This document shows positions 53,932 to 57,303 of a stretch of DNA of 64,000 nt, piece after piece (position 1 is the first letter of the stretch; each line of letters starts with the position of its first letter). The stretch is from Microcaldota archaeon. Its GTDB lineage: Archaea > Micrarchaeota > Micrarchaeia > Micrarchaeales > Micrarchaeaceae. The position numbers were made by a program, and so were the translations under genes. The notes below the pieces were generated by a model. It saw only the letters and a list, made by a program, of their open reading frames with translations, did not search any database and was not told the DNA's origin. The DNA lies in assembly GCA_021817565.1 (NCBI GenBank), contig JAKAUP010000003.1, positions 124,001 through 188,000 on the forward strand. Reading direction: 5' to 3'.

Positions 53932-54492
53932 TTAAGGGATGTTTTTCAAATAGCTTCCGAGCTTTGAAAAGGCTAGACCTCTGTCCGAAATAGCAGACTT
54001 CTTACCCATGCTCATTTGAGCAAAGGTTCTTTTCCGGCCTTTTGGAATGAATATTGGATTGTATGCAAAAGCGTACTTGCCGATGATTACTCTTGATATG
54101 GTTCCGTTTACCTCCCCTTTGAAGATTCTGATATCGCCATTTGGAAGAAGAATCCCTACAACAGACCTGAAACAGGCACGCCTGTCCTTCTTGTCTTCTA
54201 TCAGTTTGAGTATGCCTTCTAGTCCTATGGTATTGAATGCTTGCGCGGAGTATGGACCTGGAAAACCAGCTAGCGTGTTTATGAATAGGCCGCCGTCTTC
54301 TACAATAAAGCAGCGATCCTTCATCGGTTTGATGTGAGAGAGCGAATAGCGGACGATATCGCGAAGGTTGTCGCTTTGGATCTCGATCTTTTTCTCCTTT
54401 CCGGAATGTTTTATCTCTATCCCGAAACTGCTTAGTATCAGTGAAGCTTCAGAAAACTTGTTTTCGTTTCCAGTTACGAATATGATATCCAT
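53932..54492 (-). CDS. XTP/dITP diphosphatase (HAM1/RdgB)
   Basis: IIFVTGNENKFSEA; VEDGGLFINTLAGFPGPYSA; FAYNPIFIPKG. Confidence 0.9.
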   Translation of the reverse strand: MDIIFVTGNENKFSEASLILSSFGIEIKHSGKEKKIEIQSDNLRDIVRYSLSHIKPMKDRCFIVEDGGLFINTLAGFPGPYSAQAFNTIGLEGILKLIEDKKDRRACFRSVVGILLPNGDIRIFKGEVNGTISRVIIGKYAFAYNPIFIPKGRKRTFAQMSMGKKSAISDRGLAFSKLGSYLKNIP

Positions 54493-55130: not shown

Positions 55131-55322
55131 CTAGATTTTATAAATAGAATTAAGATAACAACAAATGGTACAAGATTGCATATTTAATATTGATGGTGCT
55201 ATCATAGATTTGAAAGATTTCGGGATTAATAATTGTGCTTTAATTTTGTTATACTTATCCATGAGCTTCCGAATTTCATTTTCGTTTATACTCTGCATAA
55301 GTACCACGTAGTCTTTTAACAA
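55131..55322 (-). CDS. Small ORF at 3' end of toxin cassette
   Basis: 63 aa; starts 2 nt after MazF-like stop. Confidence 0.35.
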   Translation of the reverse strand: MLKDYVVLMQSINENEIRKLMDKYNKIKAQLLIPKSFKSMIAPSILNMQSCTICCYLNSIYKI

Positions 55323-55324
55323 TA

Positions 55325-55690
55325 TTAAATTGCAAGCATATCTTTTATTATGGTCTTTATCTTTGCTATTTGCTGGTCGTCCAATTTACCTATCTCACTA
55401 CCGGTTATTCTGTCATAAGCTATGGCCCTTAACTGAAATATTAAGGCTACGCTCTCGTCATTTAGATTTGTTGTATTCGTTCTGCTTATTTGCATTGTAT
55501 AAGGAAGCTTTAGGCGTTCTAGCTTGCTTGTTAGTGGTATAACCAAGCACATGCTTAATTCGTTTATGACCTTGAAGATTATGGCTGGCCTTGCATAACT
55601 CTGCTCGTGTCCCTTACCAGTGCCAAAATCTACATTGTAGATACTATATTCTTTCACTATCCCACTACTCGAACTTTCGTAAGCCCTCAT
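55325..55690 (-). CDS. MazF/PemK-like toxin
   Basis: IYNVDFGTGKGHEQSYARPAIIFKV..CLVIPLTSK..ESVALIFQLRAIAYDRITGSEIGKLDDQQIAKIKTIIKDML. Confidence 0.78.
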   Translation of the reverse strand: MRAYESSSSGIVKEYSIYNVDFGTGKGHEQSYARPAIIFKVINELSMCLVIPLTSKLERLKLPYTMQISRTNTTNLNDESVALIFQLRAIAYDRITGSEIGKLDDQQIAKIKTIIKDMLAI

Positions 55691-56219
55691 TGCTTATACT
55701 ATCCCACTCTTCTGTTTCCTTTTCAAGAGAGTTCATTATTGCCACTCTGAGCTTTTCCGTTAGGAATAGCTTCTTGATTGTGTTAGAGCCTGTCCAAATA
55801 TCTTCTAGTTTGAGATGTGGTTTCAACTCGTGAAGTTTGTTTTCTGCCTGATTCTCGTCTAAACCTTTATCCTTTAGCCAGAGAAGGCTTGCTATTATCT
55901 CTAACTCTCTTTGATTCAACTCTCTGAGTATAGGTATTGCCTGTTTCAGTTCATCTGTCTCTTCTTTACTTAGCTGTGTTGCGTTTCTTACATTTGCAAA
56001 ATCATCTTTATAATCAAAATATTCCTTTGCTAATTCGCGAGAATACGGTCCCCTTATATAAAAGTTAAAGTCGGCATACAGCGTCTTTCCAATAAGTTTC
56101 TGAATAATGTAGGCCAGTTTCTGTGCTTTAATTCTATATTCAAATTTATCGCTATCTATCTTTACGTCTAGCAAATTCAAATAAGCTATAAATTTCTTGG
56201 TTTCATTTTTCATATTCAT
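55665..56219 (-). CDS. YwgA/Panacea-like protein, candidate antitoxin
   Basis: RIKAQKLAYIIQKLIGKTLYADFNFYIRGPYSRELAKEYF resembles K.QKL.Y..........F..Y..GPYS..L; overlaps toxin start by 26 nt. Confidence 0.6.
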   Translation of the reverse strand: MNMKNETKKFIAYLNLLDVKIDSDKFEYRIKAQKLAYIIQKLIGKTLYADFNFYIRGPYSRELAKEYFDYKDDFANVRNATQLSKEETDELKQAIPILRELNQRELEIIASLLWLKDKGLDENQAENKLHELKPHLKLEDIWTGSNTIKKLFLTEKLRVAIMNSLEKETEEWDSISNEGLRKFE

Positions 56220-56566
56220 CCCTTTTGTTCACCAAAAAAGTGTAGTGTACGGACTAACCATGATTTTATTTCTTCGTATGCCTTTTCCCCTTTTTCTTCA
56301 ATGTAATAAACAACGATTGTCCTATCTTCTACCTTAGTATCTTCAGATCGGATATAATGGTTATTTTTGAGCCATAGCAAGTTTGGCGCCAGCGAGCCGT
56401 CTTCCAGCCTTAACGTGTCTTTTATGTCTTGGTAAGACAAGCCGTCCTTGCCGTAATAGTCTAGCATAGCCAATGTGCTTATTCTTGCATAAAGCAATAA
56501 CCTTCTGTATTTCCTGTCTAAAGAGGATGGTAGACCGTTGTTGCCTTCAACTACAATAGCCGCCAT
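56216..56566 (-). CDS. Winged-helix regulator
   Basis: LSYQDIKDTLRLEDGSLAPNLLWLKNNHYIRSEDTKVEDRTIVVYYIEEKGEKAY; overlaps next gene start by 4 nt. Confidence 0.65.
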   Translation of the reverse strand: MAAIVVEGNNGLPSSLDRKYRRLLLYARISTLAMLDYYGKDGLSYQDIKDTLRLEDGSLAPNLLWLKNNHYIRSEDTKVEDRTIVVYYIEEKGEKAYEEIKSWLVRTLHFFGEQKG

Positions 56567-56693
56567 AGATATCTATCAAGTGGAAGATATTTATACCTTT
56601 ATGTTTAATTATAAATAAGTTACTTTAGAATTTATAGGTATAGTATTGTAGAAAAGTTTTATAATAGTAGGTTCATATTATCTCGGTGTTACA

Positions 56694-57014
56694 ATGAATC
56701 TTTATAGAAAAGGAAGAATTGCGGAAAGGAAGGTAATGGGATGGTTAAAGATGCGTGGTCACACAAACATTAGAAGGAGCGCAGGAAGCAGAGGGCCGGC
56801 GGACATCTATTCGGTTTCGCCAAGCGGCACAAAAACATACACTCAGGTTAAGTCTAGCAGTGCATTTCTTGATTCTAGTGGTCGTAAAAATCTGAGGCAT
56901 CTGGCCAAGGAAAGAAAGGGATTTGCACAGTACGTACATTACGAAAATGGGAAGGTAGATAAGGCGGTTCCACTCGGGAATTGGAATAGGAAAAGAACAA
57001 AAGCAATACGTTGA
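56694..57014 (+). CDS. Hjc-like PD-(D/E)XK endonuclease
   Basis: RKGRIAERKVMGWLKMRGHTNIRRSAGSRGPADIYSV...TYTQVKSSS. Confidence 0.65.
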   Translation: MNLYRKGRIAERKVMGWLKMRGHTNIRRSAGSRGPADIYSVSPSGTKTYTQVKSSSAFLDSSGRKNLRHLAKERKGFAQYVHYENGKVDKAVPLGNWNRKRTKAIR

Positions 57015-57015
57015 T

Positions 57016-57303
57016 TTGATGAGTAATGGAATAGGGGACGGACAAAATAAACCAAAACAAATCACAGGTTCGGTTTTCATCATAATAGGAATAGCGCTTT
57101 TTATCTTATCCTACATAACTTACCTTAACGGTTATCATAAAGCAGTTTCAAACGTTTCTAACTTCGGTTTCTTGTTCTCTGGCATATTTTGGTTCTTTGT
57201 GGAGGCAATAGTAGGGGCAGTGTTCTTTGCATTGGGTCTGATTTGGGTGTGGCCAAGGGGGGCTAAATGGCTGGCCGATAGAGGAAAAGGGTTTTATAAG
57301 TGA
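57016..57303 (+). CDS. Two-TM membrane protein
   Basis: Hydrophobic segments; immediately downstream of Hjc-like gene. Confidence 0.45.
   Translation: MMSNGIGDGQNKPKQITGSVFIIIGIALFILSYITYLNGYHKAVSNVSNFGFLFSGIFWFFVEAIVGAVFFALGLIWVWPRGAKWLADRGKGFYK

What the first reader, a model, noticed from the sequence alone, without database searches (positions are those of the whole stretch)
55131..56566. Four-gene overlapping cassette: wHTH, YwgA/Panacea-like, MazF/PemK-like, micro-ORF
Seen: four minus-strand genes with 4-nt and 26-nt overlaps and a 2-nt gap, so they are almost certainly co-expressed. The third protein has MazF/PemK-like motifs (VDFGTGKGHEQSYARPAIIFKV). The second has the K.QKL.Y / GPYS pattern of YwgA/Panacea-like proteins. 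Established: Panacea-domain proteins can act as antitoxins for diverse toxins, and MazF normally pairs with a MazE/AbrB-fold antitoxin. Inference: an archaeal toxin-antitoxin or anti-MGE module in which the YwgA-like protein replaces MazE, with a dedicated wHTH regulator. The 63-aa downstream ORF may be an extra component. No MazE-like gene is visible nearby.
Basis: partly seen in the sequence, partly recalled or inferred. Interest (0 to 1): 0.75.

Follow-up and report, generated by a model that had tools for sequence, protein, structure and literature searches.

The report
Archaeal MazF toxin with unusual antitoxin
This is a compact three-gene toxin-antitoxin cassette of tiny archaea (Micrarchaeota) in which an RNA-cutting MazF toxin is paired, instead of with its usual MazE partner, with an unnamed protein resembling the toxin-binding half of the antitoxin DarG, and always travels with a small DNA-binding regulator; it suggests that antitoxin parts can be swapped more freely than expected.

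Summary
The operon is real, but it is a three-gene cassette, not four. A winged-helix gene, a 184-aa YwgA-like gene and a MazF gene (PF02452, E 3.5e-19, catalytic Arg and Thr conserved) occur in this order in 30 of 30 testable loci (29 Micrarchaeota genomes plus one Thermoplasmata bin). The 63-aa fourth ORF has no counterpart in any relative. The 26-nt overlap is probably a wrong start: homologues begin where the window has GTG at 55657.

The YwgA-like protein has no family of its own in Pfam, NCBIfam or PHROGs and no match among solved structures. Its core resembles the C-terminal domain of the antitoxin DarG (25 of 25 members, best E 8e-7). It is not Panacea (profile probability 2%). MazF-linked members carry an extra C-terminal tail of about 30 residues, in many resembling the toxin-binding tail of classical MazE. 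Relatives without MazF lack the tail region and the winged-helix gene.

Best reading: a mobile three-component type II toxin-antitoxin module, with MazF as toxin, the YwgA/DarG-C-like protein as antitoxin and the winged helix as repressor. Gene content, co-inheritance and mobility are shown; neutralisation, the tail's role and repression are inferred.

The parts
56216..56566 (-). winged-helix DNA-binding protein, 116 aa (HTH_34); proposed autorepressor, first gene of the cassette
   Evidence: Pfam HTH_34 33.2 bits, above the cut-off of 27; present upstream in 30 of 30 MazF-linked loci and 0 of 7 loci with a YwgA-like gene but no MazF
55665..56219 (-). YwgA-like / DarG-C-like protein, 184 aa; proposed antitoxin
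   Evidence: No Pfam, NCBIfam or PHROGs family of its own; PADLOC DarG E 3.2e-5 for this protein and 25 of 25 relatives, best 8.4e-7; profile match to YwgA-like proteins without MazF, E 4e-30 over the core only; AlphaFold2 mean pLDDT 85.6
55668..55763 (-). C-terminal tail of the proposed antitoxin (about residues 153-184), ending in WDSISNEGLRKFE (55668-55706); proposed MazF-binding segment
   Evidence: Outside the core shared with YwgA-like proteins that lack MazF; low pLDDT, 50-59; scores 10.4 bits on a profile of classical MazE tails, p 0.0026 against 754 ORF ends and 0.010 against shuffles
55325..55657 (-). MazF/PemK toxin, 110 aa from GTG 55657 (the ORF can be extended to ATG 55690)
   Evidence: PF02452 E 3.5e-19; EndoA 4mdx E 4e-7; GHEQ, RP and PLT motifs invariant in ten relatives; a relative's model matches solved MazF structures
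56567..56681 (-). promoter region carried with the cassette; TATA-like TATAAATA at 56588-56595, about 25 nt upstream of the ATG, fitting a leaderless transcript
   Evidence: DNA similarity to relatives extends to about 56670-56681 and ends there; TATA-like block conserved in 8 upstream regions
55131..55322 (-).
   Evidence: No significant match in any of nine relatives' loci; DNA similarity ends at the MazF stop codon

Best explanation
The locus is a self-contained, horizontally mobile, three-component type II toxin-antitoxin module. MazF (55325-55657) is the toxin, a sequence-specific single-strand endoribonuclease. The 184-aa YwgA/DarG-C-like protein (55665-56219) is the antitoxin: a helical core of the kind that lets the DarG C-terminal domain sequester its toxin, extended by an amphipathic tail that probably binds MazF as MazE tails do. 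Because this antitoxin has no MazE-type DNA-binding domain, the winged-helix protein (56216-56566) supplies autoregulation, probably at a TATA-overlapping operator just upstream. Shown here: gene content, order, co-inheritance, intact toxin residues, mobility as a unit, similarity to DarG, and presence of a tail resembling MazE tails. Inferred: toxicity, neutralisation, tail-mediated binding and repression.
For: MazF assignment and conserved catalytic residues. Of 37 MazF hits found in 301 Micrarchaeota genomes with the family profile, 30 have the YwgA-like gene directly upstream; the winged-helix gene precedes it in 30 of 30 testable loci (29 of these plus the Thermoplasmata bin) and in 0 of 7 without MazF. 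Antitoxin and toxin distances correlate, r = 0.88, 0 of 2000 permutations as high, and within both sub-groups. Tight spacing: from 29-nt overlaps to 12-nt gaps, as annotated. Patchy distribution; two genomes of different families share 1432 nt at 88.8% identity with unrelated flanks, and a Thermoplasmata bin has the full module with flanking genes foreign to this Micrarchaeota order. The DarG C-terminal domain alone binds and neutralises its toxin (PMC7003065). MazE binds MazF through its disordered C-terminal part (PMC11394972). Tails of MazF-linked proteins outscore ORF ends on a profile of classical MazE tails (Mann-Whitney p 1e-13). Four MazF relatives without the YwgA-like gene have AbrB-, RHH-type or similar small antitoxins in the same place.
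Against: No experiment. No solved structure resembles the antitoxin model. The DarG similarity is weak in single searches (E 3e-5 for this protein) and far below NCBIfam's cut-off. Only 19 of 30 tails score p < 0.05, one of them at a place other than the tail motif, and 2 of 8 proteins not linked to MazF do too. The classical tails were aligned by eye and the 30 proteins are related, so the pooled p-value is optimistic. The two-domain AlphaFold run of a read-through YwgA-MazF pair was inconclusive about docking (pTM 0.63). The predicted operator is only a TATA-overlapping imperfect palindrome.
Confidence: 0.74

Rival explanations
1. The winged-helix protein is the real antitoxin (or part of it), and the YwgA-like protein is a sensor or adaptor that releases or redirects the toxin.
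For: The winged-helix gene is as strictly conserved as the other two (30 of 30), and many antitoxins are small DNA-binding proteins encoded first in the operon.
Against: The YwgA-like gene sits directly before MazF with overlapping or very short spacing, is related to a domain known to neutralise a toxin, and carries the extra tail. No MazE-like tail was seen at the end of the winged-helix proteins (inspection).
Confidence: 0.12
2. A dedicated anti-virus abortive-infection system: MazF is held by the YwgA-like protein until a viral product disturbs the complex.
For: Patchy, mobile distribution; DarTG, whose antitoxin shares the core domain, is an anti-phage system (PMC11481870).
Against: No virus contig or phage record carries a relative, no defence island is visible next to it, and simple addiction or stress modules look the same. 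This concerns biological role and is compatible with the best explanation.
Confidence: 0.3
3. The operon is not a toxin-antitoxin system: MazF acts as a regulatory RNase in a housekeeping operon.
For: MazF-fold proteins can act on specific RNAs (general knowledge); the module is chromosomal.
Against: Absent from most relatives, including the one other genome of the same genus, found in different surroundings in each genome, and moved as a unit between families. That is not how a housekeeping operon behaves.
Confidence: 0.06

Closest known systems
MazEF / PemIK (type II toxin-antitoxin)
   Same: Same toxin family with its catalytic residues; antitoxin gene directly upstream; an antitoxin tail that resembles MazE tails in many members
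   Different: The antitoxin's globular part is not AbrB- or RHH-type but YwgA/DarG-C-like, and a separate winged-helix gene is always present
DarTG
   Same: The antitoxin core resembles the C-terminal, toxin-sequestering domain of DarG
   Different: No macrodomain and no DarT; the toxin is an RNase, not a DNA ADP-ribosyltransferase
Panacea (PanAT) systems, including PemK/MazF-like PanT toxins (PMC8832971)
   Same: A non-MazE antitoxin domain paired with a MazF-like toxin, with partner exchange
   Different: The antitoxin is not a DUF4065/PF13274 protein by profile search or profile comparison; the third gene here is obligatory, whereas accessory third genes of PanAT are sporadic
Three-component systems with a separate regulator (paaR-paaA-parE; omega-epsilon-zeta from general knowledge)
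   Same: Regulator, antitoxin and toxin as three genes in one operon
   Different: Unrelated toxin, antitoxin and regulator families
YwgA-like proteins without MazF: with an acylphosphatase-like gene (six loci, five of them Micrarchaeota) or an HD-hydrolase-like gene (L056)
   Same: Homologous core (profile E 4e-30)
   Different: Shorter, without the C-terminal tail region, the winged-helix gene or MazF

Membership tests
MazEF (type II TA) | Toxin of the PemK/MazF family with catalytic Arg and Thr | tested here: met
   PF02452 E 3.5e-19; Arg34 and Thr54 invariant in ten relatives, aligned with EndoA
MazEF (type II TA) | Antitoxin with an AbrB- or RHH-type DNA-binding fold | tested here: not met
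   No MazE_antitoxin or RHH match in the operon's proteins; the antitoxin candidate is a helical protein with a beta-hairpin
MazEF (type II TA) | C-terminal toxin-binding tail on the antitoxin | tested here: inconclusive
   Window tail 10.4 bits, p 0.0026; 19 of 30 family members p < 0.05, but so are 2 of 8 unlinked proteins; short motif, no structure of a complex
MazEF (type II TA) | Toxin toxic, antitoxin neutralises by binding | not testable with these tools
   Needs expression and binding assays
Panacea (DUF4065) antitoxins | Antitoxin contains the Panacea/DUF4065 domain (PF13274) | tested here: not met
   No Pfam match in 25 members; profile against true Micrarchaeota Panacea proteins 2% probability; Panacea exists elsewhere in the phylum
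DarTG | DarG C-terminal toxin-binding domain | tested here: inconclusive
   25 of 25 members match PADLOC DarG, best 8.4e-7; for the window protein the match falls in profile 170-231; no structural match in the fold search
DarTG | N-terminal macrodomain (or NADAR) and a DarT partner | tested here: not met
   The protein is 184 aa with no macrodomain; the partner is MazF
YwgA proteins | Core with QK..Y and GPYS motifs | tested here: met
   Motifs invariant or nearly so; profile E 4e-30 to relatives, one next to an HD-domain gene. That B. subtilis YwgA has this motif and context is from memory only
Three-component TA with a separate regulator | Obligatory third gene for a DNA-binding regulator | tested here: met
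   30 of 30 loci against 0 of 7 controls
Three-component TA with a separate regulator | Regulator binds the operon's promoter | not testable with these tools
   Conserved TATA-like block only

The most novel reading that the evidence does not exclude
An undescribed antitoxin family: a DarG-C/YwgA-like scaffold that acquired a MazE-like toxin-binding tail. Antitoxins would then be modular, with the toxin-binding tail moving between unrelated globular domains (AbrB, RHH, YwgA), DNA binding handed to a separate winged-helix protein, and the YwgA scaffold serving as a promiscuous partner domain that also pairs with acylphosphatase-like proteins.
Probability: 0.45. Interest if true: 0.72.

Novelty: new variant of a known kind. 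Interest (0 to 1): 0.62.

Why it matters
Toxin-antitoxin systems of DPANN archaea are largely undescribed. If correct, this defines a MazF partner family with no entry in the libraries searched here, shows a DarG-like antitoxin scaffold serving a quite different toxin, and gives a case of antitoxin modularity in which the DNA-binding job has moved to a third protein. The cassette has moved between Micrarchaeota families and apparently into a Thermoplasmata genome, a lineage proposed as host for such archaea (general knowledge), so it also bears on gene exchange between these symbionts and other archaea.

Tried and rejected
Panacea membership: tested by Pfam, by a phylum-wide PF13274 search and by profile comparison, and rejected. 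Fold search of the antitoxin model against PDB and viral structures: no E below 0.26; the best plausible viral match is a Sulfolobus polyhedral virus 2 protein, E 0.5. The tail alone against PDB sequences: nothing. Reading the in-frame YwgA-stop-MazF pair of G247 through its TGA as one chain for AlphaFold: tail helix confident but inter-domain placement uncertain, and the deeper alignment is a confounder, so not used as evidence of docking. Viral contigs, phages and plasmids for relatives: none except a weak Campylobacter plasmid MazF. Empty-site comparison with the same-genus genome G001: no matching DNA found, so not resolved. The LmuB hit of the antitoxin (E 6e-4) is seen in 2 of 25 members only and taken as chance. 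A B. subtilis-type MazE antitoxin sequence written from memory was used once as a probe and hit 4me7_E; nothing rests on it. My interim notebook count of 20 of 30 tails was a miscount; the correct number is 19.

Full report
What is there. The first is a winged-helix protein (HTH_34, above Pfam's cut-off), the third is a PemK/MazF toxin (E 3.5e-19), and the second has no Pfam family. By phmmer the MazF aligns with B. subtilis EndoA, including the Arg of the RP motif and the Thr of the PLT motif, and both are invariant in ten relatives. A structure model of the related G247 protein matches solved MazF structures. The window belongs to a Micrarchaeota genome: relatives carry that title in public records, with a 775-kb assembly.

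Corrections. The 26-nt overlap depends on ATG 55690. In relatives MazF starts at the equivalent of GTG 55657, and in three of them the upstream stretch has an in-frame stop. The 63-aa ORF has no counterpart in nine relatives, and DNA similarity ends at the MazF stop. The conserved unit runs from the MazF stop to about 115 nt upstream of the winged-helix start, roughly 55325-56681.

Conservation. In 148 near relatives the three genes occur together in a few genomes and are mostly absent otherwise; the one other genome of the genus lacks them. Across 301 Micrarchaeota genomes, profile searches found 37 MazF and 35 YwgA-like places, and 30 are adjacent pairs. The winged-helix gene precedes the pair in 30 of 30 testable loci (29 of these pairs plus the Thermoplasmata bin) but is absent from 7 loci where a YwgA-like gene has no MazF. 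Distances among the antitoxins and among the toxins correlate strongly (r = 0.88, 0 of 2000 permutations). The wider PemK family is found in 86 of 301 genomes, mostly with other partners where I looked.

Mobility. The surroundings differ from genome to genome. G055 and G270, of different families, share 1432 nt at 88.8% identity with unrelated flanks. A Thermoplasmata bin (L051) has all three genes at about 52-59% protein identity for the YwgA-like protein; its neighbouring ribose-5-phosphate isomerase is nearly absent from this Micrarchaeota order and its UbiA-like neighbour is at most about 35% identical to anything there, so that contig is unlikely to be Micrarchaeota contamination.

The antitoxin candidate. 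It matches nothing above cut-off in Pfam, NCBIfam or PHROGs. All 25 members match PADLOC's DarG model, best E 8e-7, and in the window protein the match lies in the part after the macrodomain. The DarG C-terminal domain alone counteracts DarT and binds it (PMC7003065), by mimicking DNA according to work cited in PMC11481870. Panacea is excluded on sequence. The predicted structure is helical with one beta-hairpin carrying GPYS and a weakly predicted C-terminal helix; no solved structure resembles it.

The tail. Profile comparison with YwgA-like proteins lacking MazF covers the core only (E 4e-30, positions 6-152 of 192), so the last 30 or so residues are specific to MazF-linked members. MazE proteins bind MazF through a disordered C-terminal region (PMC11394972). 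I collected AbrB- and RHH-type antitoxins next to other Micrarchaeota MazF genes; several end in a motif of the form W-x-x-(A/S/L)-(S/A)-x-E-(S/A)-L-x-(K/R). On a 13-column profile of 16 such tails, the window tail WDSISNEGLRKFE scores 10.4 bits (p 0.0026 against 754 ORF ends, 0.010 against shuffles). Nineteen of 30 family members reach p < 0.05, one of them at a place that is not the tail motif, as do 2 of 8 unlinked proteins. This supports a MazE-like tail in many members, the window's included, but does not prove common descent, and in some families (for example G190, G191, G285) the motif is not recognised by the profile.

Partner exchange. MazF relatives of this group without the YwgA-like gene include one in G207 with an RHH-like antitoxin ending LDDLSDEALSNFEAQL, and three with AbrB-type or other small antitoxins. 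The simplest account is that one MazF lineage has used different antitoxin scaffolds.

Mechanism. In classical MazEF the antitoxin's N-terminal domain represses the operon and its tail blocks the toxin. Here the antitoxin has no such domain, and a winged-helix gene is always present, which suggests a division of labour. A TATA-like block about 25 nt before the ATG fits a leaderless transcript and overlaps an imperfect palindrome; repression there is inference. The biological role (addiction, stress arrest or abortive infection) is open.

Verdict. A real, conserved, mobile three-component toxin-antitoxin module; a new variant of MazEF-like systems with an undescribed antitoxin family related to the DarG C-terminal domain. 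I found no paper describing it: a search for YwgA with antitoxin returned none, although only open-licence papers are held.

Noticed in passing
L055:1948-3154, L112:2734-3930, L113:3187-4391, L114:2980-4171, L115:3296-4575, L116:3300-4678: A second, conserved two-gene unit: an approximately 235-300-aa protein with an acylphosphatase-like N-terminal part (Pfam E 3e-5 in L055) and a GxxLRE...WALQGAGRVF signature, followed by a YwgA-like protein without the MazF tail. Function unknown; possibly another toxin-antitoxin or defence pair.
   Followed up: partly
L054:2680-4438: In a Nitrosopumilus bin a YwgA-like protein follows a 420-aa protein with no Pfam match, beside a VirB4-like ATPase gene (annotation by eye), suggesting a third partner type on a mobile element.
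   Followed up: no
L056:1558-3495: In a Pseudorhodoplanes bin an HD-hydrolase-like gene precedes a YwgA-like gene, an arrangement that recalls ywfO-ywgA of B. subtilis (from memory).
   Followed up: no
L082:1477-1815: The MazF of G166 has GRKYAAV where others have the RP motif; the catalytic Arg may be displaced or lost.
   Followed up: no
L065, L047: G270 in the whole-genome set and the record JASHXR010000077 carry the same cassette in the same surroundings, apparently the same assembly.
   Followed up: partly
window 57016-57303: Small membrane-protein gene with an 84% identical copy next to the same cassette in G067, more similar than the cassette itself (72%); the 106-aa gene 56694-57014 between them in the window is missing in G067.
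   Followed up: partly
L127, L128, L129, L130: True Panacea (PF13274) proteins occur in a few Micrarchaeota genomes, each followed by a small (116-127 aa) RelE/HigB-looking protein (by eye), so both antitoxin kinds coexist in the phylum.
   Followed up: no
window 53932-54492: Ham1-family NTP pyrophosphatase gene (Pfam E 1e-39) two genes downstream of the cassette; ordinary housekeeping.
   Followed up: no
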